NCBI RefSeq assembly: GCF_003290025.1
Contig: NZ_QNHG01000003.1
Location: forward strand, 762,438 to 826,437
Direction of reading: 5' to 3'
DNA from: Pseudogemmobacter bohemicus
Lineage (GTDB): Bacteria > Pseudomonadota > Alphaproteobacteria > Rhodobacterales > Rhodobacteraceae
Length of the DNA: 64,000 bases
Both the position numbers and the translations under genes were made by a program. The notes below the pieces were generated by a model. The model had not been told where the DNA came from. It worked only from the letters and a program-made list of their open reading frames with translations, and ran no database searches. Positions 3,494 to 24,485 of the stretch are shown here, piece by piece. Positions within the stretch are counted from its first letter, which is position 1, and each line of letters opens with the position of its first letter.

Positions 3494-3544
3494 TTGACAG
3501 CGCCCCGGCGCCGGCGTTTATTCAGCAAGTAACCAAATGTTTAC
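3494..3544 (+). promoter_or_regulatory. Promoter with regulon operator, site A
   Basis: A TTGACA -35 at 3494-3499 is followed 17 bases later by TTTATT (3517-3522) as a possible -10. Just downstream, at 3529-3544, lies GTAAC-N6-TTTAC, flanked so that AAGTAA (3527-3532) and TTACTT (3541-3546) form perfect 6-base arms. The repeat recurs upstream of five other transcription units to the right. An operator overlapping the start point would fit repression by the nearby TetR-family protein. Confidence 0.65.
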
Positions 3545-3634
3545 TTTGTCCCACATATGGCCCCTGCATCCGCGCGTATGGCGGACGGGGCCGCACCATG
3601 CGGGTCGGCAAATGAATGAGACGGAGGCACTGGA

Positions 3635-4063
3635 ATGATCCATGAGACCCGGAATATCGCCAGCGACATGGCCTGGAAGCTCGCCGCTCTCGCGCGCGAT
3701 CATGCGGCGGATAGCGGCTGGCTGGTGGCGGTGGTGGTGACCGATGCCCAGGGCTGCCCGTTATCGGCGCTGCGAATGGATGGGGTTGCGCCGCCGATTC
3801 TCGATTTTGCCGGCGACAAGGCCTATACTGCCGCCACCATGCGGCGAAGCACTGCCGCCTGGTTCGAGCGGATGAATGCCTCACCGGGGCTGCGCACCGG
3901 ACTTGCCAATCGCAGCCGCCTGCTGGTCTGGGGCGGCGGGTTGCCGGTGGTGCTGGAGGGGCAGGTGATCGGCGGTATCGGGGTTTCCGGCGCAGCCGAA
4001 GCGGAAGACATCGCCTGCGCCCGGGCGGCGCTGGAGGCGCTTGGCCTGTTTTCCGAACTCTGA
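3635..4063 (+). CDS. GlcG/HbpS (DUF336) family protein
   Basis: A 142-residue protein covering the whole GlcG/HbpS fold (DUF336), with the typical hydrophobic strand AVVVTDAQG near residue 32 and the glycine-rich VLEGQVIGGIGVSG near the C terminus. Members occur beside oxidoreductase and glycolate genes; some bind haem or act as accessory sensors, but the biochemical role of most is unknown. A GGAGG ribosome-binding site precedes the ATG. The promoter carries the operator shared with the sugar/CoA catabolic operons, so I infer it belongs to that regulon although it is transcribed alone. No signal peptide is seen, so it is probably cytoplasmic. Confidence 0.8.
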   Translation: MIHETRNIASDMAWKLAALARDHAADSGWLVAVVVTDAQGCPLSALRMDGVAPPILDFAGDKAYTAATMRRSTAAWFERMNASPGLRTGLANRSRLLVWGGGLPVVLEGQVIGGIGVSGAAEAEDIACARAALEALGLFSEL

Positions 4064-4158
4064 CCCCTGGCGGGCGCATTGCAGATGGCCGCCATCCGGC
4101 CTGTTCGGGCGCTTGTCAGTGGGGCGGATCAGGCGCTGAACTCGCCCGCCACTATGGC

Positions 4159-4839
4159 TCAGGCGCTGACCAGACGGATGATCGTCTCGATATTGAAGCT
4201 CAGCCGCTCTTCCAGCGCCTCTTTCGCCATCAGATCGCGTTCATAGATGATGGTGCCGGTGAACCGGTTGGTGAAGTAATAGAAGCCGATGGCCGCGATG
4301 GTGATATTGAGCTGAACCGGATCGACCCCTGGGCGGAACACGCCCTGGGCGACACCGCGCTCGACGATTCCCCCCACCATCGAGACCAGCTTTCTGCTGG
4401 TGGCAGCGACCAGTTCCGACTTTTTCAGATGTTTGGCCCGGTGCAGGTTTTCGCTGTTCACCAGCGTGATGAATTCCGGGTTTTTCAGGTAGTAATCCCA
4501 GGTGAACCGCACCAGCCGCTCCAGCGCGGTGCGGGGATCGAGATTGTCGAGATTGAGCCGCTGCTCGGCGGCCCGGATATCGAGATAGGCATTCTCCAGC
4601 ACGGTCTGGAACAGACCCTCTTTGCTTTCAAAATAGTGGTAGATCATCCGCTTATTGGCTTTCGCCTTTTCGGCAATCACATCGACCCGGGCGCCGCCAA
4701 GGCCGTTGCGGGCGAATTCCCGTTTGGCGGCTTCAAGAATGCGGGTTCGGGTGGCCTCGGCATCGCGGATCCGGATGCGGGTCTTCGGGCTGGCTGCGGG
4801 TTCCCCGGCGGCGGCTTCGGTCTCTGACGGGGTGCTCAC
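4159..4839 (-). CDS. TetR/AcrR-family transcriptional regulator
   Basis: A 226-residue regulator. After a flexible N-terminal tail (residues 1-25) comes a TetR helix-turn-helix (about 30-75), recognisable by RILEAAKREFARNG and IAEKAKANKRMIYHYFESKE. The rest is the helical ligand-binding and dimerisation domain. The start is GTG at 4839, with GGAGAA five bases upstream; there is no suitable ATG. The gene is divergent from the ABC importer operon, and the intergenic region carries one copy of the inverted repeat found at six promoter regions in the island. The simplest reading is that this protein binds those repeats and is released by the imported substrate or a CoA intermediate. Regulation is inferred, not shown. 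Confidence 0.88.
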   Translation of the reverse strand: MSTPSETEAAAGEPAASPKTRIRIRDAEATRTRILEAAKREFARNGLGGARVDVIAEKAKANKRMIYHYFESKEGLFQTVLENAYLDIRAAEQRLNLDNLDPRTALERLVRFTWDYYLKNPEFITLVNSENLHRAKHLKKSELVAATSRKLVSMVGGIVERGVAQGVFRPGVDPVQLNITIAAIGFYYFTNRFTGTIIYERDLMAKEALEERLSFNIETIIRLVSA

Positions 4840-4962: not shown

Positions 4963-5004
4963 TTGACTCACGGGGTTGCAAGAAAGTAACCAGTTAGTGC
5001 GTTA
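4963..5004 (+). promoter_or_regulatory. Promoter/operator of the ABC importer operon, site B
   Basis: TTGACT at 4963-4968 could be a -35. GTAAC at 4986-4990 is the conserved left half-site. The right half differs from the consensus: it reads GTGCGTTA (4997-5004), the same eight bases found at site D (20402-20409), giving TAAC-N10-GTTA instead of TAAC-N6-GTTA. It lies between the divergent TetR gene and the importer, so it could serve both. Confidence 0.6.
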
Positions 5005-5122: not shown

Positions 5123-6232
5123 ATGTCGACCTTCATCAGGGATTATATCGAGGCGCAGACGCTGAGCCGCAGGAAGTTCCTGCTGGCCTCGGCCGCCGGC
5201 ATGGGGGCCGCGCTGGCGCCGATGGGGATGGCCGGCCGCGCAAATGCCGCGCTGACCGATCCGGCCATGGCCTGGAGCTATCGCGACCGCACCAATCCCT
5301 ACTGGAATTCCATTGTCTCGGGCGGTGAGAGCTTTGCCTCCTCCATCGGCAAGGACAAAGGCTTTATGACCCATCTGATCAATGAGGGGTCGTCCGAGAA
5401 ATCGCTCTCGGATATCAAGGCGTTCCTGTCGAAAACCGGCGGCAATTGCGCCATTGCCTGCGATGCCAATGACAGCCCCAATGCGCGCCCCGTCGTCGAG
5501 GCGGTGAAGGCGGCGGGCGGCTATGTCTCGACCATATGGAACAAGACCGACGACCTGCATCCCTGGGATTTCGGTGACAATTATGTCAGCCACATGACCT
5601 GGTCTGATGAGGGGCCGGCGGAACAGACCGCGCGCATCCTCTTCGAGGCGATGGGCAACAAGGGGGGCGTCGTCCATCTGGGTGGCATCGCGGCGAACAA
5701 CCCGGCGATTGAACGGCTGAACGGGCTGAAAAATGCGCTGAAGGATTTCCCGGATATCGAACTGCTCGACGCGCAGCCGGCCGACTGGGATACGCAAAAG
5801 GCCAATGAGCTGATGGCGAGCTTCCTCACCCGCTACGGCGATGAGATCAAGGGCGTCCACTGCGCCAATGACACCATCGCTTACGGGGTGCTGGAGGCTT
5901 TGCGTGCCGAAGGGATCGAGGGGATGCCGGTCGTCTCATATGACGGCAATCTCCAGGCGGTCGAGCTGGTGATGAAGGGCGATATCCTCTGCACCGTCTC
6001 GACCAACCCCTATTGGGGTGGCGGTATCACCTCGGCTCTGTCCTATCACGCGGCCATCGGCACCTTTAAGCCCTCGGAAGAGCCGCCCGAACATCGCGAA
6101 TTCTACGGCCCGACCGTGCTGATCACCAAAGCCGATGCCGAAGAGTTCAGGAAAACCAATCTCGACGCGACACCGACCTATGACTGGACCGATTTCTGGG
6201 GTCCGGGCAATGGTCAGATCCAGTATAAGTAA
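5123..6232 (+). CDS. Sugar ABC transporter substrate-binding protein (ribose/galactose type), Tat-exported
   Basis: A 369-residue periplasmic binding protein of the RbsB/MglB class (PBP type I fold). It begins with a twin-arginine signal (SRRKFLLASAAG near residues 14-25) and a likely cut after GRANA, so export should go through Tat. A longer open frame starts at 5006, but the ATG at 5123 has a GGAGGA ribosome-binding site and puts the Tat signal at the N terminus. It heads the importer operon of permease, ATPase and permease. The ligand cannot be read from sequence; neighbours suggest a sugar, sugar acid or polyol. Tat export of a sugar-binding protein suggests folding or cofactor loading before export. 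Confidence 0.9.
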   Translation: MSTFIRDYIEAQTLSRRKFLLASAAGMGAALAPMGMAGRANAALTDPAMAWSYRDRTNPYWNSIVSGGESFASSIGKDKGFMTHLINEGSSEKSLSDIKAFLSKTGGNCAIACDANDSPNARPVVEAVKAAGGYVSTIWNKTDDLHPWDFGDNYVSHMTWSDEGPAEQTARILFEAMGNKGGVVHLGGIAANNPAIERLNGLKNALKDFPDIELLDAQPADWDTQKANELMASFLTRYGDEIKGVHCANDTIAYGVLEALRAEGIEGMPVVSYDGNLQAVELVMKGDILCTVSTNPYWGGGITSALSYHAAIGTFKPSEEPPEHREFYGPTVLITKADAEEFRKTNLDATPTYDWTDFWGPGNGQIQYK

Positions 6233-6301: not shown

Positions 6302-7267
6302 TTGGGCGCTCGCATCTCGCGCGCGACCTTGCTCAGATGGGCACCGTTTCTGGTGCTGATCGCGCTGGTCGTCTTCTTCACGATCCTCAATCCGAGTTTC
6401 TTCTCGCTGCGCAATGCGGCGCGGATCGCGCTGGCCGCGACGCCGGCGCTGATGGTGGCGATCGGGGTGACCTTCATCCTGATCATGGGGTCGATCGACC
6501 TGTCGATGGAGGGGGCGGTCTCGGTTACCGCCGTGCTGTTTGCCACGGTGTTTTTGCAGCTGGGGGGCACGCTGGCCTCCTGGGCCTGGATCGCACTGCC
6601 GGCGGCGGTGCTGGCGGGGGCGGTGTTCGGGATGCTGAACGGCTGGCTGCATGTAAAGCTGCAGATCCCCTCTTTCATGGCGAGCCTTGCTTTCGGTTTC
6701 GTCGGCACCGGTCTTGCGCTGATGATGACCGGCGGCGACCGGATCCGGGTCGAGGATGAGCTGTTCAGGGGCCTTCTGACCTTCCGCTTTGCAGGCTTTC
6801 CGCTGATGGTCTGGCTGGCCTTCGGTTTCGTGCTGATCGCCTGGTTCATTCAGACCCGGACCACCATCGGGCGCAATCTCTATGCGGTCGGCGGCGGCGA
6901 GGAACTGGCCCATGCCTCGGGGCTGAACACGCGGCGGGTGCGGGTGATCGGCTTCACGCTTGCCGGCGCCTTCTACGCGCTGGGCGCGCTGATGGCGGTG
7001 GCGCGGATCGGCATCGCGGAAACCGCTACCGGCAATAACTTCATGTTCATCTCGATCACCTCGGCGGTGGTCGGGGGCGTTGCGCTTTGGGGTGGTATCG
7101 GCGGGGTGTGGAACGCGGTCGTCGGCGTGCTGATCGTCAATGTCATCAATAACGGCATGGTGGTGATCGGACTGCCCGATTACCTCCAGGACGGGGTGCT
7201 GGGGCTGATGGTGATCCTCGCCGTGGTCCTTTCCACCGACCGCCGCCTTGTCAGTTTCGTGAAGTGA
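6302..7267 (+). CDS. Sugar ABC transporter permease (RbsC type)
   Basis: A 321-residue inner-membrane permease of the branched-chain amino acid/ribose family (BPD_transp_2), with about nine hydrophobic segments and the cytoplasmic-loop sequence NLYAVGGGEELAHASG typical of RbsC-like proteins for contact with the ATPase. The first usable start is TTG at 6302, about eight bases after a G-rich ribosome-binding site; no in-frame ATG lies near the N terminus, and the first membrane helix begins around residue 13. It probably forms a heterodimeric channel with the second permease encoded at 8791. Confidence 0.9.
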   Translation: MGARISRATLLRWAPFLVLIALVVFFTILNPSFFSLRNAARIALAATPALMVAIGVTFILIMGSIDLSMEGAVSVTAVLFATVFLQLGGTLASWAWIALPAAVLAGAVFGMLNGWLHVKLQIPSFMASLAFGFVGTGLALMMTGGDRIRVEDELFRGLLTFRFAGFPLMVWLAFGFVLIAWFIQTRTTIGRNLYAVGGGEELAHASGLNTRRVRVIGFTLAGAFYALGALMAVARIGIAETATGNNFMFISITSAVVGGVALWGGIGGVWNAVVGVLIVNVINNGMVVIGLPDYLQDGVLGLMVILAVVLSTDRRLVSFVK

Positions 7268-7277
7268 GGGCCGGGCG

Positions 7278-8783
7278 ATGTATCAGCTGAAAGCGGTCGA
7301 CAAGAAATTTCCCGGCGTCCATGCGCTGAAAGCGGTGGATTTCGAGGTGAAACGTGGCGAGGTCGTCGGCCTTGTCGGCGAGAATGGCGCCGGCAAATCC
7401 ACCCTTATGAAGGTGATCTACGGCGCCTATCAGCCCGATGGCGGCGAGATTTCCATCGACGGGCGCGCGGTGCATTTCGCCAATCCGCGCCAGGCGATGG
7501 AGCAGGGCATCGGCATGGTGTTCCAGGAGCAATCGCTGATCCCGAACCTTACGGTGATGGAGAATGTCTTCCTGGGGCAGGAGGCGCAATTCGTCCGCTT
7601 CGGCGTGATCAACCGCCGCGCCATGGCGGCGGCGACGCGCCGCCAGCTGGCCAAGGTGAAACTGGATATCGACCCGGGCATGGTCACGGCGGATCTCTCC
7701 TTCGCGCAGCGCCAGCTGGTCGAACTGGCCAAGGTGCTGACGCTGGAGGAACGGGTCGAGGGCGATCTGGTGATCCTGCTGGATGAGCCGACCTCGGTTC
7801 TGAACCGCGAAGAGGTTGAACTTTTGTTCGGCCTGGTGCGGGAACTCACCTCGCGCGCATCGTTCATCTTCGTCAGCCACCGCATGGACGAGGTGATGGA
7901 GCTGTCCGACCGCATCTATGTGATGAAGGACGGCCAGGTGGTTGATGTGGTGACGCGCGGCGCCTCGGATGTCGAGGCGATCCAGAAGAAGATGGTCGGC
8001 CGCTCGGTCGATAAGGAATATTACCGCGAGCCGCGGCAGAAACCCTATGATCCCTCGCGCGTGCTGGTCGAGATGGACCGCGTCCGTTTCCCGGGCCGCG
8101 CGGCCGAAGTGTCGCTGAAGCTTCATGCCGGTGAGGTTCTGTGCCTCGTTGGCACCGAAGGCTCGGGCCGCGAGGCGGTTTTGCGCACCATTTTCGGCAT
8201 GCGCACGCCGCTTGCCGGCCGTGTCTCGATCAAAGGGCGCGAGGTCACCCGTTTCTCCCCGCGCAATGCGGTGGAGCAGGGCGTCGGCTATGTCCCGCGT
8301 GAACGCAAGATCGAGGGCATCGTCGCGGGGATGAGCGTTTACGAGAATATGACGCTCTCGCAGATGCGCCGCTATTCCGGTGCCGGCGTGTTGCGCACAG
8401 GCGAGGAAAAGGCGCTGGCGCGCGACTGGATCAAAAAGCTCTCGATCAAGGCGCATTCCGAATTTGCCGATTGCGGCAATCTTTCGGGCGGCAATCAGCA
8501 AAAGGTGGTGCTGTCGAAATGGCGCTCCGGCGGCTCGGATATCATGCTGCTGGACCACCCGACGCGTGGCCTCGATATCGGTGCCAAGGAGGATGTCTAT
8601 GACATGATCCGCGACATGTCGGATGATGGCGTGGGCGTGGTGCTGGTCGCCGATACGCTGGAAGAGGCGATCGGGCTTTCCCACACGATCCTTGTCCTGA
8701 AGGACGGGGTCATTCAGCAGAAATTCGACGGCGCGCCGGGTGCGAAACCGACGCTGTTCGATCTGCTTCATTACATGATCTGA
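7278..8783 (+). CDS. Sugar ABC transporter ATP-binding protein (RbsA/MglA type, two ABC domains)
   Basis: A 501-residue protein with tandem ABC modules. The first has Walker A GENGAGKST (residues 34-42) and Walker B VILLDEPTSVL but a degenerate signature (LSFAQRQ). The second lacks the Walker A lysine (GTEGSGRE) but keeps a good signature (LSGGNQQK). This split of functions is normal for RbsA/MglA proteins. It lies 10 bases after the first permease and 7 before the second, so the four importer genes form one operon starting at 5123. Confidence 0.93.
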   Translation: MYQLKAVDKKFPGVHALKAVDFEVKRGEVVGLVGENGAGKSTLMKVIYGAYQPDGGEISIDGRAVHFANPRQAMEQGIGMVFQEQSLIPNLTVMENVFLGQEAQFVRFGVINRRAMAAATRRQLAKVKLDIDPGMVTADLSFAQRQLVELAKVLTLEERVEGDLVILLDEPTSVLNREEVELLFGLVRELTSRASFIFVSHRMDEVMELSDRIYVMKDGQVVDVVTRGASDVEAIQKKMVGRSVDKEYYREPRQKPYDPSRVLVEMDRVRFPGRAAEVSLKLHAGEVLCLVGTEGSGREAVLRTIFGMRTPLAGRVSIKGREVTRFSPRNAVEQGVGYVPRERKIEGIVAGMSVYENMTLSQMRRYSGAGVLRTGEEKALARDWIKKLSIKAHSEFADCGNLSGGNQQKVVLSKWRSGGSDIMLLDHPTRGLDIGAKEDVYDMIRDMSDDGVGVVLVADTLEEAIGLSHTILVLKDGVIQQKFDGAPGAKPTLFDLLHYMI

Positions 8784-8790
8784 GGGGGCG

Positions 8791-9735
8791 ATGATGGATT
8801 TTCAGCGCATCAAACCGCATCTGCCCTGGCTGACGCTGGTGGTGCTGACCGCTTTCGTCGGCATTGCCAATCCGACATTCCTGGCGCCGTCGAACCTGCT
8901 GATGCTGGCCGGCGATATCGTGCCTTTGTTCATCATGGCACTGGGTCTGACCTTCGCCATCTATATCGGCGGCATCGACCTTTCGGCGCAGTCGATGGCC
9001 AATCTGGTGACGGTGATCGCCTCGATTTACCTCGCCTCGATGGGGGCCTTTGTGGCGGTGCTTTGCGTGCTGGCGGGCTTTCTGTTCGGCACCCTTTCGG
9101 GGGTGATCACGACAAAGCTGAAAGTGCCCTCCTTCATCTCGACCCTCGCGATTGGCGGCGTGGCGTTTTCGCTGGCGCAATGGCTTTCCGGCCAGAAGGC
9201 TTTGTTCATGGATGCCAGCCAGCGCGACGCGAGTTTCGGCTGGATGATCGGGCGCACCGGCATCATCCCGAACGAGCTGTTCCTGGCCGCCGCCCTGTTG
9301 CTGCTGTGTCTTTTCATCGAGCGCCGGACGGTGCTGGGACGGGCGCTGAAGGCGGTCGGCGCCGGAGAGCTGGCGGCGGCGGCCTCGGGGCTGAATGTGG
9401 CGCGCTACAAGATCCTCGCTTTCGCGCTATCGGGCGCGCTGGCGGCGATTGCGGGGCTGTTGTTCTCGGTGAAACTCTCGGGCGGGGCGCCGACGATTGC
9501 GAATGGCTTCCTCTTGCCGGCGATTGTGGCGGTGCTGGTGGGTGGCACGCCGCTGACCGGGGGGGTGGGGGGTGTGTTGAACACGGTGATCGGCACGCTG
9601 ATCGTCGCGGTGATCCGTGCCTCGATGCTGTATTTCGAAATCGACGCCACCCGTCAGCAGATGGTCTTTGGCCTGGTGCTGATTGCCGCCATCGCGCTGA
9701 CCATCGACCGATCAAAACTGAGGGTGGTGAAATGA
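8791..9735 (+). CDS. Sugar ABC transporter permease, second subunit
   Basis: A 314-residue RbsC-type permease with about eight to nine hydrophobic segments and the loop ALKAVGAGELAAAASG, which matches the equivalent loop of the first permease. It starts with two consecutive ATG codons after a GGGGG ribosome-binding site; either could be used. Its stop overlaps the start of the alcohol dehydrogenase gene (ATGA), so uptake and first oxidation are translationally coupled. Confidence 0.9.
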   Translation: MMDFQRIKPHLPWLTLVVLTAFVGIANPTFLAPSNLLMLAGDIVPLFIMALGLTFAIYIGGIDLSAQSMANLVTVIASIYLASMGAFVAVLCVLAGFLFGTLSGVITTKLKVPSFISTLAIGGVAFSLAQWLSGQKALFMDASQRDASFGWMIGRTGIIPNELFLAAALLLLCLFIERRTVLGRALKAVGAGELAAAASGLNVARYKILAFALSGALAAIAGLLFSVKLSGGAPTIANGFLLPAIVAVLVGGTPLTGGVGGVLNTVIGTLIVAVIRASMLYFEIDATRQQMVFGLVLIAAIALTIDRSKLRVVK

Positions 9736-10763
9736 TGCGCGCCGCCGTGCTGACCGCGCCGGGCCGGTTTGAGATCCGCGAGGTGCCCCGGCCGGCAGTC
9801 GGCCCGCGGGATGCGCTGATCCGGGTGACCCGCACCGGCATTTGCGGCACCGATCTGCATATGTTTCATGGGGCTTACGCCGCTGACAGCCTGCCACTGA
9901 TCCCTGGGCACGAGTTTTGCGGCGTGATCGAAGACCTGGGGGCAGAGGTTGCCAGCCTTACCCAGGGCCAGACCGTTGTGGCCGATATCAATATCGGTTG
10001 CGGCACCTGTTTCTGGTGCCGTCGGAACGAGGTGCTGAACTGCCCCGATATGGCGCAGCTGGGCATCTCGCGCGATGGCGCTTTCGCGGACTATGTCGCG
10101 CTGCCGGCGCGGCTGGTGATCCCGGCGCCGGAAAATGCCGCGCCCGAGCTGCTGGCGCTGGTCGAACCGGTCGCCTGCGTGGTCAGGGCGGCCAGGAAGG
10201 CCGGCGCCGGCATCGGTCAATCGGCGGTGGTGCTCGGGGCCGGGCCGGTCGGCAACCTGCATGTGCAGATGCTGCGGCTTTGCGGCGTCGCCCCGATCAT
10301 CGTGGCAGACCTGTCGCAAGACCGCTGCCGCATGGCGCTGGAGGCCGGGGCCGATGCTGCGGTTTCCGACCCCGCGCTGCTGCAGGCCCGCGTGCTGGAA
10401 ATGACCGGCGGGCGCGGCGCCGATCTGGTCATCGAAAGCGTCGGCTCGCCGCGCCTTTACACCGAGGCCTTTCGGCTGATCCGCAAAGGCGGCCATGTTG
10501 CCTTCTTTGGCCTGACCGGGCCGGAGGCGGCGGTCGAGGTCAATATTCTCGACACCATCCTGCGTGAAAACAGCCTCAAAGGCTCGGTCGCAGGGATGGG
10601 GGAGGATATGCATGAGGCGCTTGTGCTGCTGACCCATGGCCGGTTCCGCACCGATGCCTTTACCCGCGCCAGCTATCCGCTCGACCGGATTCAGGAAGCG
10701 TTCGAGAGTTTCGCGGCGCGGCCCCGGGACCTGAAAACCCAGATCGTGATCGGCCCCGGCTGA
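9732..10763 (+). CDS. Zinc-dependent alcohol/polyol dehydrogenase (MDR family, sorbitol-dehydrogenase-like)
   Basis: A 343-residue NAD(P)-dependent medium-chain dehydrogenase. Catalytic zinc ligands are visible as C38 (GICGTDLH) and H60-E61 (GHEF). The structural zinc cysteines are C90, C93, C96 and C104. The Rossmann glycine motif is VLGAGPVGNLH. The closest functional classes are sorbitol, threonine and related sugar-alcohol dehydrogenases, which oxidise a secondary hydroxyl. The frame is open far upstream inside the permease gene, but the start at 9732 overlaps the permease stop as ATGA and matches family length. It is the last gene of the importer operon and probably carries out an early oxidation of the imported compound. 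Confidence 0.9.
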   Translation: MMRAAVLTAPGRFEIREVPRPAVGPRDALIRVTRTGICGTDLHMFHGAYAADSLPLIPGHEFCGVIEDLGAEVASLTQGQTVVADINIGCGTCFWCRRNEVLNCPDMAQLGISRDGAFADYVALPARLVIPAPENAAPELLALVEPVACVVRAARKAGAGIGQSAVVLGAGPVGNLHVQMLRLCGVAPIIVADLSQDRCRMALEAGADAAVSDPALLQARVLEMTGGRGADLVIESVGSPRLYTEAFRLIRKGGHVAFFGLTGPEAAVEVNILDTILRENSLKGSVAGMGEDMHEALVLLTHGRFRTDAFTRASYPLDRIQEAFESFAARPRDLKTQIVIGPG

Positions 10764-10774: not shown

Positions 10775-10801
10775 TTGACAGATTAATAACCATATAGTTA
10801 C
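10775..10801 (+). promoter_or_regulatory. Promoter/operator of the ALDH-GMC operon, site C
   Basis: TTGACA at 10775-10780 is a strong -35. Within and after its spacer lies ATAAC-N6-GTTAC (10786-10801), the island's common inverted repeat. The -10 would fall at about 10798-10804, so a bound repressor would cover the promoter core. Confidence 0.65.
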
Positions 10802-10842: not shown

Positions 10843-12338
<1,496 letters not shown>

Positions 12339-12339
<1 letters not shown>

Positions 12340-14935: not shown

Positions 14936-14951
14936 ATAACTGGTTAGTTAC
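14936..14951 (+). promoter_or_regulatory. Operator site E between the aldo/keto reductase and CoA-transferase genes
   Basis: ATAAC-N6-GTTAC, 27 bases before the CoA-transferase start. TTGCTA (14905-14910) and TATTCT (14929-14934) could be the -35 and -10 for the rightward promoter, putting the operator at the transcription start. Confidence 0.62.
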
Positions 14952-17648: not shown

Positions 17649-18901
17649 CCGAAGCGGATCGCGCATTTCTGACCGGGCTCTTCACCGCGGCGGTCGCGTC
17701 CGTCATGCCCGAGGGCGCGCTGGCGGCGCATTTGCCGCCCGTGCCGCGCGGCCGCACGGTGGTGGTCGGCGCCGGCAAGGGGGCGGCGCAGATGGCGGCG
17801 GCGTTTGACCGGCTCTGGCCCGGGCCGCTCTCGGGGATGGTGGTGACGCGCTACGGCTACGCATGTCCGGCGGGCCGCATCCGGGTGGTGGAGGCGGCGC
17901 ATCCGGTGCCCGATGCCGCCGGTCTTGCCGCCAGCGCGGCGCTGTTTCATGCGGTGCGCGAAGCGGGGCCGGAGGATCTGGTGGTGGCGCTGATCTGTGG
18001 CGGCGGCTCGGCCCTTTTGCCCGCGCCGCCCGGCGGGCTGACACTTGCCGATGAGGCCGCGCTGAACGCGGCGCTGCTGGCTTCGGGCGCGCCGATCTCG
18101 GTGATGAATGCGATCCGCAAACAGGTCTCGGGGATCAAGGGCGGGCGGCTGGCAGCGGCAAGCCTTGCGCCGGTGGTCACGCTGGTCGTCTCGGATGTGC
18201 CGGGGGATGATCCGGCCCAGGTGGCCTCGGCCCCGACCATCCCGGATGCGGGCAGCCGGGCTGAGGCGCGGGCGCTGGCAGAGCGCTGGCGCATCGCCTT
18301 GCCTCGTCCGGTGCAGGCCTGGCTGGGCAGTGATGAAGGCACGGCGCCGCACCCGGATGACCCGGTTTTCGCGCGGCATCAGACCCGCGTGATCGCCTCG
18401 GCGCGCATCGCGCTGGAGGCGGCGGCGGCGCGCTCCGAGGCGGCGGGTGTGCCGGCGGTGATCCTCTCTGACGCGATGGAGGGCGAGGCGCGCGAGGTCG
18501 GTCGCGTTCATGCTGCCATCGCGCGCGAGACCGCTTTGCGCGACCGCCCCTTCCGCCGCCCCGTCCTGCTGCTGTCGGGCGGTGAGACCACGGTGACGCT
18601 GCGGGCCAAAGGCCGGGGCGGGCGCAATTCCGAATTCCTGCTGGCGCTTGCGCTGGCCGCCGAGGGCGTGAATTTCGCGGCGCTGGCGGCGGATACCGAT
18701 GGCATTGACGGCTCCGGGCAGAATGCCGGCGCCTTTGCCACCGGGGCGACGGCGGCGCGGCTGCGCGACCTTGGGCTGGACCCTGCCGGGCTTTTGGCCG
18801 CGCATGACAGCTGGGGGGCGTTCAACGCGCTGAGTGATCTGTTCCAGCCCGGGCCGACCGGCACGAATGTCAATGATTTCCGCGCGATCCTGATCCGCTG
18901 A
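17645..18901 (+). CDS. MOFRL-family glycerate 2-kinase (GckA/TtuD type)
   Basis: A 418-residue protein with an N-terminal DUF4147 nucleotide-binding half and a C-terminal MOFRL half (conserved LLSGGETTVT and GRGGRNSEFLLALA). This family phosphorylates D-glycerate to 2-phosphoglycerate; it was once annotated as hydroxypyruvate reductase. It ends the CoA-transferase operon. Its presence argues that a C3 fragment such as glycerate is released by the pathway and fed into lower glycolysis. Confidence 0.9.
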   Translation: MTEADRAFLTGLFTAAVASVMPEGALAAHLPPVPRGRTVVVGAGKGAAQMAAAFDRLWPGPLSGMVVTRYGYACPAGRIRVVEAAHPVPDAAGLAASAALFHAVREAGPEDLVVALICGGGSALLPAPPGGLTLADEAALNAALLASGAPISVMNAIRKQVSGIKGGRLAAASLAPVVTLVVSDVPGDDPAQVASAPTIPDAGSRAEARALAERWRIALPRPVQAWLGSDEGTAPHPDDPVFARHQTRVIASARIALEAAAARSEAAGVPAVILSDAMEGEAREVGRVHAAIARETALRDRPFRRPVLLLSGGETTVTLRAKGRGGRNSEFLLALALAAEGVNFAALAADTDGIDGSGQNAGAFATGATAARLRDLGLDPAGLLAAHDSWGAFNALSDLFQPGPTGTNVNDFRAILIR

Positions 18902-18907: not shown

Positions 18908-19360
18908 TCAGGCCAGCAACATCACCTGATTGCGCCCGCGCTGCACCAGGGTGCCATGCTGGTTTGTCACCGTGAAGTCCAGCGTGACGATACCGCGCCC
19001 CGGGTCCTTGGTCGCCCGCATATCCACCACTTCGATCCGCGCCGTGATCCGGTCGCCGGCAAGGACCGGTGCGGTGAAGCTCTGATCCCAGCCCAGCGAG
19101 GCCACTGCGCGGAATTGCGCCGGCGCCTGGTTCTTCAGCCCGTCAACCAGCGACAGAACCAGCAGCCCATGGGCCACCCGACCCGCAAAACCATGCTCTG
19201 CGGCGGCCTCACGACTCATATGGATCGCGAAACGGTCGCCGGTGAGATCCGCAAAGGCGTCGATCATCGCGGCGGTGACCACGCGGCTGCCGGTTTCGAC
19301 CACATCGCCGGGGTGCAGGTCAGCCAGACCGTAGCGCCCCGGCGCCAGCAGCCGTGTCAC
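18908..19360 (-). CDS. MaoC-like (R)-specific enoyl-CoA hydratase
   Basis: A 150-residue single hot-dog protein. The hydratase motif is clear: LTGDRFAIH followed by EHGFAGRVAHGLL, with the catalytic Asp/His pair. The frame is open further upstream, but the GTG at 19360 overlaps the stop of the aldo/keto reductase (GTGA) and gives the family length. It would hydrate an enoyl-CoA to a 3-hydroxyacyl-CoA of R configuration. The island therefore has two hydratases of opposite expected stereochemistry (crotonase and MaoC), as if an epimerisation or two sequential steps were needed. Confidence 0.85.
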   Translation of the reverse strand: MTRLLAPGRYGLADLHPGDVVETGSRVVTAAMIDAFADLTGDRFAIHMSREAAAEHGFAGRVAHGLLVLSLVDGLKNQAPAQFRAVASLGWDQSFTAPVLAGDRITARIEVVDMRATKDPGRGIVTLDFTVTNQHGTLVQRGRNQVMLLA

Positions 19361-20373
19361 ACCGGGACCGGAGCGTCTTCGCGCAGCAAGCCGCGCGTCT
19401 TCAGCGCCGCCCAGAATTCCGCCGGGATCGGATGGCTGAACCAGGCGAGGTTCTGCTCCAGCTGCCCGACGGTGCGGGTGCCGGCGCAGAAGGAGGGGAT
19501 CGCCGGATGCGCCACCACGAATTGCAGCGCCGCCGCCGGCAGCGGTACGTTGTATTCGGCGCAGACGGCCTCGATCTTTGCGACCTTTTCCATGATCGCG
19601 GCCGGGGCGGGGGCGTAATTGTATTTCGCCCCCGGCACCGCGCCGGTGGCGAGGATGCCCGAATTGAAGCCACCGCCCACCACCACCGCCGCACCGCGCG
19701 CCTCGCAAAGCGGCAGGAACCCGTCCAGCGCGTCCTGCTCCAGCAGAGTGTAGCGGCCGGCCAGCAGGAAACAGTCGAAATCGCGCTGCTCAAGGGCGGC
19801 CTGGCAGACCTCCCATTCATTGACACCGACGCCGATGGCTTTCACCACCCCCTGGTCGCGCAGGCTGGCCAGCGCGCGCCAGCAGCCATCCATCGCTTGT
19901 GCAAAGACTTCGGGCTGCTCGGCGCCACGGGTGAAAACGTCGATATCATGGATGAACATCATGTCGATCCGCTCCAGCGCGAGACGCTGCAGGCTGTCCT
20001 CGAACGCGCGCATCGTGCCGTCATAGCTGTAATCGAATTCCATCCGGAACGGCGCCGCATTGACCCAGGGCGCGAAGTCGACCGAGCCGCGCGGCGCCGG
20101 ATGCAGCACCCGCCCGACCTTGGATGCCAGCACGAAATCATCGCGGTTTTTCCAGCGCAAAGCCTGGCCGGTGCGGATTTCCGCCAGCCCATGGCCATAC
20201 ATCGGCGCGGTATCGAAGAATCGCACGCCGCCCTCCCAGGCGTGGCGGAACATCTCTTGCGAGGTGTCTTCGTCGATCTCCCGCAGGAAGTTCCCGACCG
20301 GCGCGGTGCCGAAGGCAAAGGCGGTAACGTCAAGATCGACACGGCCGAAGCGGCGCTTCTGAGCGGGATGCAT
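19357..20373 (-). CDS. Aldo/keto reductase (aldose 1-dehydrogenase-like)
   Basis: A 338-residue AKR with the catalytic residues visible in FFDTAPMYG (D, Y), VLASKVG (K) and MMFIHDID (H). The best family match is the group holding L-fucose/D-threo-aldose 1-dehydrogenase and pyridoxal dehydrogenase, which oxidise an aldose to its lactone with NAD(P). A GGGAGGAG ribosome-binding site precedes the ATG. Operator site D sits about 18 bases upstream of the start codon. The gene is coupled to the MaoC gene downstream and divergent from the acyl-CoA dehydrogenase operon. Confidence 0.88.
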   Translation of the reverse strand: MHPAQKRRFGRVDLDVTAFAFGTAPVGNFLREIDEDTSQEMFRHAWEGGVRFFDTAPMYGHGLAEIRTGQALRWKNRDDFVLASKVGRVLHPAPRGSVDFAPWVNAAPFRMEFDYSYDGTMRAFEDSLQRLALERIDMMFIHDIDVFTRGAEQPEVFAQAMDGCWRALASLRDQGVVKAIGVGVNEWEVCQAALEQRDFDCFLLAGRYTLLEQDALDGFLPLCEARGAAVVVGGGFNSGILATGAVPGAKYNYAPAPAAIMEKVAKIEAVCAEYNVPLPAAALQFVVAHPAIPSFCAGTRTVGQLEQNLAWFSHPIPAEFWAALKTRGLLREDAPVPV

Positions 20374-20482: not shown

Positions 20483-20555
20483 TTGACGGCAGGGGAGAGA
20501 TCAAAATATGTAACTGATTAGTTACTAACCATTCGGTTACAAACGCAGTGGTTAC
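20483..20555 (+). promoter_or_regulatory. Promoter with three tandem operators, site F
   Basis: TTGACG at 20483 is a possible -35. Three copies of the island repeat follow head to tail: GTAAC-N6-GTTAC (20510-20525), CTAAC-N6-GTTAC (20525-20540) and CAAAC-N6-GTTAC (20540-20555). The right half GTTAC recurs exactly every 15 bases (20521, 20536, 20551), while the left half decays stepwise. The array ends 20 bases before the acyl-CoA dehydrogenase start codon. Confidence 0.7.
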
Positions 20556-20575
20556 ATACTCCAGGGGAGGGGGCG

Positions 20576-21718
20576 ATGGTTCTGACCGGGATGCAGGTGC
20601 AGGTGCGCGATATGGCGCGGCGTTTCGCCGATGAGACGATCCGGCCCGCCGCCGAGGCGCTGGATCGCGACGAGCGCTTCCCTGCGGAAATCTACGAGGA
20701 AATGGCACAGCTTGGCCTGTTCGGCATCGGTGTGCCCGAGGAATTCGGCGGCCCGGGTTTCGACACGCTGACCTATGCCGTGGTGATGGAAGAGCTGTCG
20801 CGCGGCTATGCCAGCGTGGCCGATCAATGCGGTCTGGTCGAGCTGATCTCGAGCCTCCTCGTGCGGCATGGCACAGCCGGTCAGCGCGCGCTGCTGCCCG
20901 ACATTCTCGCCATGCGCAAAAAGGTCGCCTATTGCATCACCGAGCCCGAGGCCGGCACCGATGTCTCGGGGATCCGCACCATCGCCACGCCGGATGGCGC
21001 GGGCTGGCGGCTGAATGGTGGCAAGATCTGGATCCATAATGCGCCGGTCGCCGATCTCGGCTTCGTGCTGGCGGTGACGGATAAAGCTGCCGGCAATCGC
21101 GGCATGTCGATCTTCATCGTCGATCTGAACGGCCCGGGCGTCGAGCGTGGTCCCAAGGAACACAAGATGGGCCAGCGCGCGAGCCAGGTCGGCGCGTTGA
21201 ATTTCACCGATGTGAAACTCGGGCAGGAGGCGCTGCTGGGCGACCAGGGCCGGGGCTTTCATATGATGATGTCGGTGCTGGACAAGGGCCGGGTCGGGAT
21301 CGGCTCGCTCGCGGTCGGCATCGGCCAGGCGGGGCTGGAGGCTGCGGTGGATTACGCCGCCACCCGCAAGCAATTCGGCAAGCAGATCGCCGAATTCCAG
21401 GGCGTGCAATGGCTGCTTGCGGATATGGCCAAGGATATCGAGGCGGCGCGGCTGCTGGTGCGCTCGGCCGCGCATAAGATCGACGCGGGCGAGGACGCGA
21501 CGCGGGCCTGTTCGATGGCGAAATGCTTCGCGGGCGATATGGCGGTGGCGCGGACGGCGGATGCGGTGCAGGTCTTTGGCGGCTCGGGCTATATTCGCGG
21601 CTTCGAGGTCGAGCGCCTCTATCGCGATGCCAAGATCTGCCAGATCTATGAGGGGACGCAGCAGATCCAGCGCATGATCATCGCGCGGGAACTGTTGAAA
21701 AAAGGCGCGCTGGCATGA
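20576..21718 (+). CDS. Acyl-CoA dehydrogenase
   Basis: A 380-residue flavoprotein with the three-part ACAD fold: an N-terminal helical domain, a middle beta domain (YCITEPEAGTDVSG) and a C-terminal helical domain. The catalytic base is E359 in IYEGTQQIQR, the position used by short- and medium-chain ACADs. It should introduce a 2,3 double bond into an acyl-CoA and pass electrons to ETF. A GGGGAGGGGG ribosome-binding site precedes the ATG. It is the first gene of a four-gene operon (SDR, DUF993, TIM-barrel) and is controlled by the triple operator. Confidence 0.92.
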   Translation: MVLTGMQVQVRDMARRFADETIRPAAEALDRDERFPAEIYEEMAQLGLFGIGVPEEFGGPGFDTLTYAVVMEELSRGYASVADQCGLVELISSLLVRHGTAGQRALLPDILAMRKKVAYCITEPEAGTDVSGIRTIATPDGAGWRLNGGKIWIHNAPVADLGFVLAVTDKAAGNRGMSIFIVDLNGPGVERGPKEHKMGQRASQVGALNFTDVKLGQEALLGDQGRGFHMMMSVLDKGRVGIGSLAVGIGQAGLEAAVDYAATRKQFGKQIAEFQGVQWLLADMAKDIEAARLLVRSAAHKIDAGEDATRACSMAKCFAGDMAVARTADAVQVFGGSGYIRGFEVERLYRDAKICQIYEGTQQIQRMIIARELLKKGALA

Positions 21719-22479
21719 GCCGGGTCGCGCTGGTTACCGGGTCTTCGCGCGGGATCGGGCTGGCTGCGGCAAAGGCGCTGGCAGCCGAAGGTTTTGCCGT
21801 CGCGCTGAATGGCCCGGCCGATGATGAGGAACTGCGCGCCGCCGTCGCCACCCTGGCGGCAAGTGGCGCGCGGGTGATTGCTGCGCCCTTTGATGTCAGC
21901 GACATAGCGGCCCATACGGGCGCGCTGACCCGGATCGAGGCCGCGCTTGGCCCCCTGACCACGCTGGTCAATAATGCGGGTGTCGGTGTCCTCAGCCGGG
22001 GTGATCTGCTCGATGTGACCGAGGCCAGCTGGGACCGCTGCCTGACCATCAACACCAAGGCGATGTTCTTCCTCTCCCAGGCCTTTGCGCGGCTTTTGCT
22101 GTCGCGCGAACGCGGGCCGGATTTCCACGCCATCGTCAATGTCACCTCGTCGAATGCGGTGGCGGTGGCGGTGCAGCGCGCCGAATATTGTGCCTCAAAG
22201 GCCGCCGCCGCGATGGTGTCGAGAACGCTCGCCGCCCGGCTCGGGGCCGAGGGGATTGCGGTCTATGACGTACAGCCTGGCCTGATCGCCACCGATATGA
22301 CCGCCGCCGTCATCGAAGGCTACCGCGCCCGCGCCGAGGCCGGGCTGACGCTGATCCCACGCGTGGGCACGCCCGGGGATATGGGCGCCATCATTGCCAG
22401 CCTGGCGTCAGGCCGGCTTCCCTATACCACCGGGCAGGTGATCTCCGCCGATGGCGGCTTGCTTGTCCCTCGTTTCTGA
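21715..22479 (+). CDS. Short-chain dehydrogenase/reductase (3-ketoacyl reductase-like)
   Basis: A 254-residue classical SDR. The cofactor motif TGSSRGIG is near the N terminus, NNAG lies in the middle, and the catalytic Tyr/Lys pair is Y158 and K162 (EYCASK). The closest group annotates as 3-ketoacyl-ACP reductase, often a label for sugar or hydroxyacyl dehydrogenases in catabolic operons. The start overlaps the ACAD stop (ATGA). It is a candidate for the 3-hydroxyacyl-CoA dehydrogenase step, since no FadB-type gene is present. Confidence 0.9.
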   Translation: MSRVALVTGSSRGIGLAAAKALAAEGFAVALNGPADDEELRAAVATLAASGARVIAAPFDVSDIAAHTGALTRIEAALGPLTTLVNNAGVGVLSRGDLLDVTEASWDRCLTINTKAMFFLSQAFARLLLSRERGPDFHAIVNVTSSNAVAVAVQRAEYCASKAAAAMVSRTLAARLGAEGIAVYDVQPGLIATDMTAAVIEGYRARAEAGLTLIPRVGTPGDMGAIIASLASGRLPYTTGQVISADGGLLVPRF

Positions 22480-22488
22480 GGTTCGGCC

Positions 22489-23640
22489 ATGAAGATTAAG
22501 CTCCCGGATCAGACTGGCCGGATGGTGGAGTATATGCTGAGCGGCACGCCGATTGCCGCCGGCACCCTGGCGAAAGACGTGGCGCGGGTGGTTTATTCCG
22601 CCGCGCATGTGGTCGCGGACCCGTTCAGCGCGGCGGACCCTGGCGGCCCGGCGGCGATTGACTGGCAAAAGACGATGGCGTTTCGCCATTACCTCGCGGG
22701 GCTTGGCCTGGGCATTGCCGAGGCGATGGATACCGCGCAGCGCGGCATGGGCCTTGACTGGGGCGCGGCGCTGGAACTGATCCGTCGCACGCGCGAAGAA
22801 CTGCCTGACGCGCTGGTGGCCAATGGCTGCGGCACCGATCATCTGGCGCCCGGGGATGCGCAGGGTGTTGAGGATGTGATCCGCGCTTATCTCATGCAGG
22901 CCGATGCGATCCAGGCTCTGGGCGGCGATCTGATCGTGATGGCGAGCCGGGCGCTGGTGCGGGTCGCCACCGGCCCCGCCGATTACATCCGCGCCTATGA
23001 TGCCGTGCTGGCGGGCTGCGACCGCCCCGTCGTGCTGCACTGGCTGGGCGAGATGTTCGACCCGCAACTGGCCGGCTATTGGGGCGCCCGGGATTTCGAC
23101 GCGCAGATGGAGGTCGCGCTGGAGGTGATCGCCCGCAACACTGCCAAGGTCGACGGGATCAAGATCAGCCTGCTCGACAAGGATAAGGAAATCGCGATGC
23201 GCCGTCGCCTGCCCGCAGGCGTGAAGATGTATACCGGCGATGATTTCAACTACCCCGAGCTGATCCAGGGCGACGAACAGGGCTATTCCCATGCGCTGCT
23301 GGGGATCTTCGATCCGCTTGCGCCGGCGGCGGCCCATGCGGTTTCGCGCCTTGGTGCCGGAGATGTGGCCGGGTTCCGCGCCACGCTGGACCCGACCGTG
23401 CCGCTGGCGCGGACGATCTTCCGCGCGCCGACGCAATACTACAAGACCGGGGTGGTTTTCCTGGCCTGGCTCAACGGGTTCCAGGACCATTTCATCATGC
23501 CGGGGGGCCATCAGGCGCTGCGCCCGCTGCCCTATTTCACGGACTGTTTCCGGCTGGCCGATCAGGCCGGTCTGCTGCGCCAGCCGGAGCTTGCCGTGAC
23601 CCGAATGAAGACCCTCCTCGCGCTTTACGGCGCAGAATGA
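22489..23640 (+). CDS. DUF993 protein, candidate class I aldolase of dihydrodipicolinate-synthase fold
   Basis: A 383-residue protein that I place in the DUF993 family, distant relatives of the DapA/NanA TIM-barrel aldolases. The segment VDGIKISLLD resembles the strand that carries the Schiff-base lysine in DapA (GIK motif), making K225 the predicted catalytic residue. The segment after it, GVKMYTGDDFNYPEL, is like the product-side strand of that family. No function is established for DUF993 that I know of. In an operon with an acyl-CoA dehydrogenase and an SDR, and with no thiolase in the island, it is the best candidate for the carbon-carbon cleavage step. Its stop overlaps the next gene. 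Confidence 0.8.
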   Translation: MKIKLPDQTGRMVEYMLSGTPIAAGTLAKDVARVVYSAAHVVADPFSAADPGGPAAIDWQKTMAFRHYLAGLGLGIAEAMDTAQRGMGLDWGAALELIRRTREELPDALVANGCGTDHLAPGDAQGVEDVIRAYLMQADAIQALGGDLIVMASRALVRVATGPADYIRAYDAVLAGCDRPVVLHWLGEMFDPQLAGYWGARDFDAQMEVALEVIARNTAKVDGIKISLLDKDKEIAMRRRLPAGVKMYTGDDFNYPELIQGDEQGYSHALLGIFDPLAPAAAHAVSRLGAGDVAGFRATLDPTVPLARTIFRAPTQYYKTGVVFLAWLNGFQDHFIMPGGHQALRPLPYFTDCFRLADQAGLLRQPELAVTRMKTLLALYGAE

Positions 23641-24485
23641 GGGACTTCACGAAAGGCCACCCGGCGCTTGCGCTGAACACTGCCAGCCTGGGCCACAATC
23701 TGGACGGGGCAGGGGCCGGGTGGTCGCCAGAGCGTGTGATTGACGCCTGTGCTGCGCGCGGTTTTGGCGGCATCACCTTCTGGCGCCGCGAGATCGGGTC
23801 GCGGGCGGTCGCGATCGGTGACAGGGTGCGGGCAGCCGGGATGCAGGTTGTGGGGCTCTGTCGTACCCCGTTCCTGACCGGGCCGGATGTGCCGGCGGCT
23901 CTTGCCGATGAGATGAAAGCGGCCATCGACATGACGGCGGCGCTTGGTGCGCCGGTGCTGACCATCGTGACCGGCGGCACCGAGCCGGGGCTGCGCGGTC
24001 TGGCCGGCACCTGGGATCTGCTGGCGGAACGGCTCGCCCCGGCCTGTGACCGCGCGGCAGAGGCGGGTGTCCGGCTGGCGCTGGAGCCACTGAACCCGAT
24101 GTTCGGCGGCAACCGGACCTGTCTTTTCACCGTGGCCGATGCGCTGGAGATCTGCGACCGGCTCAATCACCCGGCACTTGGGATCGCGGTCGATGTCTAT
24201 CATGTCTGGTGGGACAGCCGCCTTTCCGACAGCCTTGCCCGCGCCCGGGGCCGCATCCTGGGCTATCACCTGTGCGACTGGCTGGCCGCGACCTCGGACA
24301 TGCTGCTTGATCGCGGCATGATGGGCGACGGCGTTGCCGATCTGCGCGCCATCCGCGCGGCGGTCGAGGGCGCCGGCTATACCGGCGCCTGCGAGGTCGA
24401 GATTTTCTCGGCGGCAAACTGGTGGCGGCGTGATCCGGGCGAGGTGCTGGATGTGATCGCCTCGCGCTTTCGCAATTGTTGCTGA
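23637..24485 (+). CDS. Sugar phosphate isomerase/epimerase-like TIM-barrel protein
   Basis: A 282-residue protein of the AP-endonuclease-2 fold (IolE/IolI/hydroxypyruvate isomerase group). Metal-site segments are visible: LALEPLNP (Glu), GIAVDVYHVWWD (Asp/His) and GYHLCDW (His). The family isomerises, epimerises or dehydrates sugars and keto-sugars, and some members act on 3-keto-glycosides. It begins in an ATGA overlap with DUF993 and ends the operon. A sugar-acting enzyme beside an acyl-CoA dehydrogenase supports a pathway that joins sugar and CoA chemistry. Confidence 0.85.
   Translation: MRDFTKGHPALALNTASLGHNLDGAGAGWSPERVIDACAARGFGGITFWRREIGSRAVAIGDRVRAAGMQVVGLCRTPFLTGPDVPAALADEMKAAIDMTAALGAPVLTIVTGGTEPGLRGLAGTWDLLAERLAPACDRAAEAGVRLALEPLNPMFGGNRTCLFTVADALEICDRLNHPALGIAVDVYHVWWDSRLSDSLARARGRILGYHLCDWLAATSDMLLDRGMMGDGVADLRAIRAAVEGAGYTGACEVEIFSAANWWRRDPGEVLDVIASRFRNCC

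What the first reader, a model, noticed from the sequence alone, without database searches (positions are those of the whole stretch)
3494..24485. Candidate undescribed pathway joining sugar import to acyl-CoA oxidation
The island combines a ribose-type importer, polyol/aldose-type dehydrogenases, a GMC oxidase, an aldehyde dehydrogenase, a CoA-transferase, two enoyl-CoA hydratases, an acyl-CoA dehydrogenase, an SDR, DUF993, a sugar isomerase-like protein and a glycerate kinase. Known sugar pathways end in phosphorylated sugars or aldolase products of keto-deoxy acids. A few, such as oxidative deoxyribose catabolism, use CoA-transferases, but not with an acyl-CoA dehydrogenase and DUF993. A plausible route is sugar/polyol to acid, CoA activation, dehydrogenation/hydration, C-C cleavage, then glycerate to 2-phosphoglycerate.
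Basis: inference. Interest (0 to 1): 0.82.

Follow-up and report, generated by a model that had tools for sequence, protein, structure and literature searches.

The report
Sugar oxidation island feeding acyl-CoA enzymes
A block of about twenty bacterial genes that imports a sugar, oxidises its end carbon with close relatives of vitamin-C-industry enzymes, and apparently passes the resulting acid to fatty-acid-type (CoA) enzymes has stayed together in many distant bacteria, but its sugar and its final steps are still unknown.

Summary
Window 3635-24485 holds a TetR gene, a CUT2 sugar importer, Zn-alcohol dehydrogenase, aldehyde dehydrogenase (ALDH), GMC oxidase, CoA-transferase, crotonase, Dabb, glycerate kinase, MaoC, two aldo-keto reductases, acyl-CoA dehydrogenase (ACAD), SDR, DUF993 and a TIM-barrel isomerase. 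It is one unit: same order in Paracoccus, Ensifer and Sinorhizobium meliloti pSymA, rearranged but linked elsewhere. In 196 genomes of the order, all 5 with the importer's binding protein have the DUF993 orthologue 15-17 kb away. A palindrome, GTAACYNNNNRGTTAC, precedes the ACAD gene in 49 of 60 loci and most CoA-transferase and reductase genes. New clue: the ALDH is 76% identical to crystallised Gluconobacter L-sorbosone dehydrogenase and abuts the GMC oxidase, as in the L-sorbose to 2-keto-L-gulonate route. Five variants with TRAP (acid) transporters lack importer, GMC and ALDH at the locus but keep CoA-side genes. So the front half probably makes a sugar acid that the back half consumes as a CoA ester. 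Substrate, CoA steps and cleavage are inferred. Glycerate kinase is not constant (19 of 58 loci).

The parts
3529..3544 (.). operator-like palindrome, 1 mismatch, upstream of the HbpS-like gene
3635..4063 (+). HbpS-like protein (PF03928); assigned by its operator-like site only
4159..4839 (-). TetR-family regulator (TetR_C_29)
   Evidence: matches of 69-77% in 5 of 6 genomes probed, 44% or less in the sixth
4984..4999 (.). AAGTAACCAGTTAGTG, variant site with the same half-sites in the TetR/SBP promoter; such a site found in 8 of 15 SBP-upstream regions read
5123..6232 (+). CUT2 sugar-binding protein with a twin-arginine signal (seen in the sequence); nearest solved structure 2rjo
6302..7267 (+). 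CUT2 permease
7278..8783 (+). CUT2 ATPase with two ABC domains
8791..9735 (+). CUT2 permease
9732..10763 (+). zinc alcohol/polyol dehydrogenase (start)
10786..10801 (.). operator-like palindrome, 1 mismatch, before ALDH-GMC
10843..12339 (+). aldehyde dehydrogenase of the L-sorbosone dehydrogenase type (76% to 7w5l)
12339..13940 (+). GMC FAD oxidoreductase, taken as L-sorbose-dehydrogenase-like from family and position; no signal peptide evident
14022..14840 (-). aldo-keto reductase 1, nearest NCBIfam model DkgB (under cut-off)
14936..14951 (.). operator-like palindrome, 1 mismatch, between AKR1 and CoA-transferase
14978..16552 (+). family I CoA-transferase; conserved EQG motif, Glu329
16549..17331 (+). 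crotonase/enoyl-CoA hydratase; Glu114 and Glu134 conserved
17328..17648 (+). Dabb-domain protein (accessory)
17645..18901 (+). MOFRL-type glycerate kinase (accessory)
18908..19360 (-). MaoC-type hydratase (accessory)
19357..20373 (-). aldo-keto reductase 2, nearest NCBIfam model YdjG (weak, far under cut-off)
20510..20540 (.). two abutting operator-like palindromes (0 and 1 mismatch) between AKR2 and ACAD
20576..21718 (+). acyl-CoA dehydrogenase; Glu359 of YEGT conserved
21715..22479 (+). SDR dehydrogenase (NCBIfam PRK12745, above cut-off)
22489..23640 (+). DUF993, DHDPS-like TIM barrel; conserved Lys225 on the sixth barrel strand (my count)
23637..24485 (+). xylose-isomerase-like TIM barrel; Glu150/Asp186/His211/Glu253 conserved

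Best explanation
One co-regulated catabolic island. A CUT2 ABC importer brings in a sugar or polyol; the zinc dehydrogenase may make the ketose. The GMC oxidase and the aldehyde dehydrogenase oxidise a terminal CH2OH to COOH, as L-sorbose dehydrogenase plus L-sorbosone dehydrogenase make 2-keto-L-gulonate in Gluconobacter; the aldo-keto reductases may adjust keto groups. The family I CoA-transferase activates the sugar acid, the acyl-CoA dehydrogenase (with ETF) removes two hydrogens alpha,beta, the SDR oxidises a hydroxyl, and DUF993 (Schiff-base-aldolase-like) with the metal-type TIM isomerase cleaves and rearranges the chain; glycerate kinase, where present, may capture a C3 fragment. Shown by sequence: gene content, conservation, a shared operator-like site at the CoA and reductase genes, the SNDH family match, intact catalytic residues, and separability of the CoA half. 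Inferred: the substrate class (ketose/polyol giving a 2-ketoaldonate, about 0.4; L-sorbose itself about 0.2), that TetR binds the site, all reactions after CoA activation, and their order.
For: Synteny and co-occurrence. Linkage survives several rearrangements (L028/L029, L035/L045, L037/L041, L046). Operator: 125 sites with at most 1 mismatch in 60 loci, 0 inside genes matched to my reference set; upstream of ACAD 49 of 60, CoA-transferase 37 of 49, AKR1 30 of 34, AKR2 33 of 37; mononucleotide shuffle 1 site, four control patterns 11, 3, 0, 2; in the window 6 sites with at most 2 mismatches against 0.68 expected. ALDH 377 of 494 residues identical to SNDH 7w5l, with Cys295-Cys296, Phe164, Glu171, Val297, Arg445 shared (paper PMC10602560, passages). 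ETF-beta beside 16 of 58 loci, ETF-QO 4 of 58. TRAP loci: GMC or ALDH in 0 of 5 versus 41 of 53 others (Fisher 0.0014). Whole genomes of these five: binding protein in 0 of 5 (limit E 1e-60); GMC best 41% in two and none at E 1e-140 in two more; ALDH best 43-44% in three and none at E 1e-100 in one; the fifth, G005, has 51% homologues of both at another locus. In L020 the TetR orthologue (76%) sits beside the TRAP genes and the site precedes CoA-transferase and ACAD. In PMC7092628 (passages), removing eight E. coli reductases, DkgB and YdjG among them, raised 2-KLG from 4.43 to 5.85 g/L in an SDH+SNDH strain (but lowered it from 2.58 to 2.32 with SDH alone); AKR1 and AKR2 are nearest to these two families.
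Against: S. meliloti carries the island on pSymA, yet L-sorbose is not in the table of carbon sources supporting its growth, and loss of pSymA drops these only from 73 to 69 (PMC4207669, passages; supplement not read, so whether L-sorbose was tested was not seen). The 16-bp site precedes ALDH in only 2 of 29 cases, SBP in 3 of 18, TetR in 2 of 23; importer control rests on a shorter variant in 8 of 15 regions. A 2-ketoaldonate has no CH2-CH2 next to the carboxyl for a classical acyl-CoA dehydrogenase. AroE-like genes in 4 of 5 TRAP loci are unexplained. Outside the 58 loci, L108 has TRAP-like genes together with GMC, ALDH and a CoA-transferase. Profile comparison of DUF993 with one DHDPS protein gave nothing.
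Confidence: 0.55

Rival explanations
1. Same single pathway, but the substrate is not an ordinary ketose: a primary alcohol whose acid carries CH-CH next to the carboxyl (deoxy sugar, branched polyol or hydroxymethyl cyclitol). Import, CH2OH to COOH, CoA ester, classical dehydrogenation, hydration, oxidation, lyase. The L-sorbose activity of the Gluconobacter homologues would be a side activity.
For: An ACAD with intact Glu359, crotonase Glu114/Glu134 and MaoC fit true beta-oxidation steps (roles recalled). AroE-like dehydrogenases occur in TRAP variants L052, L066, L068, L100 and keep a Lys, Asn and Asp that I recall from shikimate dehydrogenases, hinting at a cyclic acid. S. meliloti growth data do not point to a common sugar (PMC4207669, passages).
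Against: ALDH is much closer to the characterised SNDH (889 bits, 76%) than to any other solved ALDH (next 513 bits). Four Pseudomonas/Caballeronia islands show no crotonase or MaoC at my cut-offs within 21 kb (L073 has weak crotonase hits). [quoted passage not shown]
Confidence: 0.3
2. A variant of the known oxidative deoxyribose/deoxyribonate pathway: sugar acid to CoA ester, 3-keto ester, cleavage to acetyl-CoA and glyceryl-CoA, glycerate kinase.
For: CoA-transferase, dehydrogenase and glycerate kinase together resemble the Klebsiella cluster (PMC6365646, passages).
Against: [quoted passage not shown] that paper's main text has 0 mentions of acyl-CoA dehydrogenase and of ABC transporter; glycerate kinase is not constant here.
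Confidence: 0.08
3. Two neighbouring but unrelated operons: a sugar uptake/oxidation operon and an acid-degrading CoA operon.
For: The two halves can be separated: TRAP variants carry only CoA-side genes. The 16-bp site is rare at the importer and ALDH genes.
Against: They stay linked through several rearrangements, 5 of 5 importer genomes carry both, and reductase and CoA genes share the site. The TRAP variants also fit one pathway entered at the acid.
Confidence: 0.07

Closest known systems
L-sorbose dehydrogenase / L-sorbosone dehydrogenase (SDH/SNDH) pair of Gluconobacter oxydans, 2-keto-L-gulonate route
   Same: ALDH (498 aa; SNDH 504 aa) 76% identical to SNDH 7w5l with catalytic and channel residues shared, directly followed by a GMC flavoenzyme
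   Different: Here the pair lies in an island with a sugar importer and CoA enzymes; no SDH sequence was met in the searches, so the GMC match rests on family and position (adjacency of the two genes in G. oxydans T-100 is recalled; the locus of strain WSH-004 was not seen)
Oxidative deoxyribose/deoxyribonate pathways (Price et al. 2019, PMC6365646, passages)
   Same: sugar acid, CoA activation, dehydrogenase, glycerate kinase
   Different: no BKACE, thiolase or lactonase found here; acyl-CoA dehydrogenase, DUF993 and TIM isomerase here
DHDPS/N-acetylneuraminate lyase class I aldolase superfamily
   Same: DUF993 model (mean pLDDT 90.4) matches DHDPS entries after 4dnh, TM 0.57-0.67 by query among the 49 rows listed; conserved lysine on the sixth barrel strand
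   Different: no PF00701 hit at E 0.001, no profile match to one DHDPS protein; the DHDPS tyrosine motif is not evident (recalled comparison)
Xylose-isomerase-like keto-sugar epimerases (IolI, tagatose 3-epimerase, YcjR)
   Same: fold and four conserved E/D/H/E positions
   Different: nearest structures are 3ju2/3qc0 (SMc04130) and 7vpf, whose PDB titles give no function beyond '(putative) sugar isomerase'

Membership tests
SNDH (L-sorbosone dehydrogenase) | high identity to the characterised enzyme, catalytic Cys296 with redox partner Cys295, channel Phe164/Glu171/Arg445 | tested here: met
   377 of 494 identical, all these residues present in the window protein
SNDH (L-sorbosone dehydrogenase) | oxidises L-sorbosone | not testable with these tools
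   needs an enzyme assay
SDH/SNDH pair | FAD GMC oxidase next to SNDH | tested here: met
   10843-12339 and 12339-13940 abut; same neighbours in Gluconobacter L044 and L057
SDH/SNDH pair | GMC is a true L-sorbose dehydrogenase by sequence | tested here: inconclusive
   best solved relatives are other alcohol oxidases; no SDH sequence available for comparison
CUT2 sugar ABC importer | Peripla_BP_4 receptor, two BPD_transp_2 permeases, ATPase with two ABC domains | tested here: met
Fatty-acid beta-oxidation | thiolase in the set | tested here: not met
   no PF00108 match in the window
Fatty-acid beta-oxidation | ACAD and hydratase catalytic residues | tested here: met
   Glu359; Glu114 and Glu134 conserved (roles recalled)
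Oxidative deoxyribonate pathway | BKACE or thiolase cleaving the 3-keto acid/ester | tested here: not met
DHDPS-type Schiff-base aldolase | DHDPS fold | tested here: met
DHDPS-type Schiff-base aldolase | lysine on strand 6 that forms a Schiff base | tested here: inconclusive
   Lys225 at least 95% conserved in 79 sequences, invariant in the 28 of A4, in strand 221-227; no superposition made and chemistry untested

The most novel reading that the evidence does not exclude
The vitamin-C-industry enzymes SDH and SNDH are the front end of a widespread, natural CoA-dependent sugar-acid pathway in which an acyl-CoA dehydrogenase oxidises a polyhydroxy (sugar) acyl-CoA, perhaps to an ascorbate-like enediol, and DUF993 plus the TIM isomerase form a new class of carbon-carbon cleavage pair.
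Probability: 0.25. Interest if true: 0.85.

Novelty: new variant of a known kind. Interest (0 to 1): 0.62.

Why it matters
If right, it joins sugar oxidation directly to acyl-CoA chemistry, gives a context and an assayable reaction to DUF993 (no mention in the 5.39 million held papers), and suggests a native setting for SDH and SNDH, used to make the vitamin C precursor, and a way in which 2-keto-L-gulonate might be lost. The island sits in a genetic model, S. meliloti 1021 pSymA, so it can be tested at once.

Tried and rejected
Known-pathway readings: the deoxyribonate pathway, plain fatty-acid oxidation and two unrelated operons were considered and marked down. The cyclic-acid idea from AroE-like genes stays open. 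Glycerate as obligatory product was dropped. Paper searches for DUF993, PF06187, PDB codes and SMc tags found no functional study; the six-term pathway search, asking for five of six terms, gave 0 papers. Profile comparison of DUF993 with one DHDPS protein failed. Passages of two S. meliloti papers gave no ligand, nor did the SMa14 tags in PMC12542648.


Full report
What is there. The window lies in a 5.6 Mb, 16-contig genome at C3:762438-826437. Gene by gene: HbpS-like 3635-4063; TetR 4159-4839 (-); CUT2 binding protein with a twin-arginine signal 5123-6232; permease, two-domain ATPase, permease 6302-9735; Zn-dehydrogenase 9732-10763; ALDH 10843-12339; GMC 12339-13940; AKR1 14022-14840 (-); family I CoA-transferase 14978-16552; crotonase 16549-17331; Dabb 17328-17648; MOFRL glycerate kinase 17645-18901; MaoC 18908-19360 (-); AKR2 19357-20373 (-); acyl-CoA dehydrogenase 20576-21718; SDR 21715-22479; DUF993 22489-23640; xylose-isomerase-like TIM barrel 23637-24485. 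A GST-like gene (24592-25179, -) and a WYL regulator (about 25243-25953) follow; neither was seen beside the island in the related loci.

It is a unit. The plasmid collection holds the set in Paracoccus, Ensifer, 'Roseateles' XES5 and Sagittula; Paracoccus and Roseateles add ETF-beta and ETF-alpha after the TIM gene. Of the loci examined (L012-L112), 58 carry both an ACAD at 60% identity or more and DUF993; in these 58: SDR 58, TIM 54, CoA-transferase 45, GMC 40, AKR2 35, ALDH 33, AKR1 32, crotonase 29, TetR 22, MaoC 20, glycerate kinase 19, Dabb 17, binding protein 16, ETF-beta 16 (contig ends make these lower bounds). Several arrangements differ in order and strand yet keep importer and CoA genes together. 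S. meliloti 1021 pSymA carries the island in the same order, without Dabb and MaoC matches, from ETF-alpha at 765131 to TetR at 787454. In 196 genomes of the order, 5 have the binding protein at E 1e-80 or better, and all 5 have the DUF993 orthologue at 71-100% identity about 15-17 kb away. Five further genomes have DUF993 at 67-76% without the binding protein; the stretches read there show CUT1-type, TRAP-like or undetermined importers.

It looks co-regulated. A palindrome GTAACYNNNNRGTTAC stands in the window at 3529, 10786, 14936, 20510 and 20525 with at most one mismatch (6 sites with at most two mismatches; 0.68 expected, 0 of 100 shuffles reach 6). Over 60 loci (the 58 plus S. meliloti 1021 and the window) there are 125 sites with at most one mismatch, none inside a gene matched to my reference proteins; 49 of 60 ACAD starts, 37 of 49 CoA-transferase starts, 30 of 34 AKR1 starts and 33 of 37 AKR2 starts have one within 250 bp upstream; GMC, SDR, DUF993, TIM, ADH, crotonase and glycerate kinase starts have none and MaoC 1 of 20, as expected inside operons; one mononucleotide shuffle gave 1 site and four other palindromes gave 11, 3, 0 and 2. 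Weaker: ALDH 2 of 29, SBP 3 of 18, TetR 2 of 23. In front of SBP a shorter variant, AAGTAACYAGTTAGTG or its complement, recurs in 8 of 15 regions read. That the TetR binds these sites is inferred.

Front half. The ALDH is by far nearest to the crystallised L-sorbosone dehydrogenase of Gluconobacter oxydans WSH-004 (889 bits; next solved ALDH 513 bits), 377 of 494 residues identical without gaps, sharing Cys295-Cys296, the catalytic residues and most channel residues named in PMC10602560 (passages; Met167 is Leu here). Of 27 aligned rows (window, 7w5l and 25 others, including four of 36% identity or less to SNDH picked up by the clustering), Glu171 and Arg445 are kept in 23 each. The GMC directly downstream has alcohol-oxidase-type entries as its nearest solved relatives (that these act on primary alcohols is recalled). 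PMC7092628 (passages) describes FAD-SDH plus SNDH making 2-keto-L-gulonate from L-sorbose in E. coli; removal of eight reductases that include DkgB and YdjG raised the titre with SDH+SNDH (4.43 to 5.85 g/L) but slightly lowered it with SDH alone (2.58 to 2.32). AKR1's best NCBIfam match is DkgB (225 bits, under the 327 cut-off) and AKR2's is YdjG (75 bits, far under the cut-off of 550). So a terminal CH2OH to COOH conversion of a ketose-like sugar is the best reading. The receptor resembles 2rjo (278 bits), which is close to the Caballeronia island's own receptor (669 bits); its ligand could not be read here.

Back half. ACAD Glu359 (49 sequences), crotonase Glu114/Glu134 (44) and CoA-transferase Glu329 (51) are kept in at least 95% of the aligned homologues; ETF-QO beside 4 of 58 loci argues for the oxidative direction. 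DUF993 folds as a DHDPS-like barrel with Lys225 on the sixth barrel strand, where class I aldolases of this fold have their Schiff-base lysine (recalled). The TIM protein keeps Glu150, Asp186, His211 and Glu253 in at least 95% of 76 sequences, the metal-ligand pattern of keto-sugar epimerases (recalled). No thiolase match lies in the window.

A natural experiment. Five ACAD-DUF993 loci carry TRAP transporters (L020, L052, L066, L068, L100): none has GMC or ALDH at my cut-offs, against 41 of 53 other loci (Fisher 0.0014; related loci; L052 is only 9.6 kb and shows no CoA-transferase). Whole-genome searches: binding protein in 0 of 5; GMC best 41% in the genomes of L020 and L052 and none at E 1e-140 in those of L066 and L068; best ALDH 43-44% in three and none at E 1e-100 in one; G005 (L100) has 51% homologues of both at another locus. 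L020 keeps CoA-transferase 80%, ACAD 85%, SDR 77%, DUF993 77%, TIM 73% with the same operator-like sites, and the TetR orthologue beside the TRAP genes. This is what one expects if an acid can be imported ready-made. Against a clean split, L108, a DUF993 locus outside the 58, has TRAP-like genes together with GMC and ALDH.

Limits. The sugar is not known. L-sorbose is not in the list of carbon sources supporting S. meliloti growth, and losing pSymA costs only 4 of 73 (PMC4207669, passages). AroE-like dehydrogenases in 4 of 5 TRAP loci are unexplained. How an ACAD would act on a hydroxylated sugar acyl-CoA is conjecture. Judgement: a real, conserved, probably co-regulated island, most likely one catabolic pathway, whose front end resembles a known enzyme pair and whose back end is not matched by any pathway I found in the searches named above.

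Noticed in passing
own genome G000:C3:510351-511508 (L098): A second DUF993 system, without CoA-transferase or ACAD in the 19.5 kb read: CUT1-type ABC importer, two GMC-type oxidases, SDR, Dabb, DUF993; in same-genus relatives also glycerate kinase.
   Followed up: partly
L052 4513-5322, L066 4242-5066, L100 15278-16105: AroE-like (Shikimate_dh_N) dehydrogenases beside TRAP transporters in acid-importing variants of the island.
   Followed up: partly
L074, L079, L083 and related loci: DUF993 in other operons with Gfo/Idh dehydrogenase, TctC/tripartite transporter, enolase-superfamily protein and, nearby, a TPP enzyme, suggesting a general sugar-acid role.
   Followed up: partly
L014 9375, L015 11977: An operator-like site (1 mismatch) also precedes a neighbouring VOC gene (L014) and a GMC gene of a CUT1 importer cluster (L015), so the regulon may be larger.
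   Followed up: no
L114 (S. meliloti ml21 pSymA) 15595-21119: The AKR1/CoA-transferase stretch holds an IS21-type element, a group II intron and a ParDE-type pair, while strain 1021 has full-length matches to both genes.
   Followed up: no
window 24592-25179: A GST-like gene directly after the island on the other strand; not part of the conserved set.
   Followed up: no
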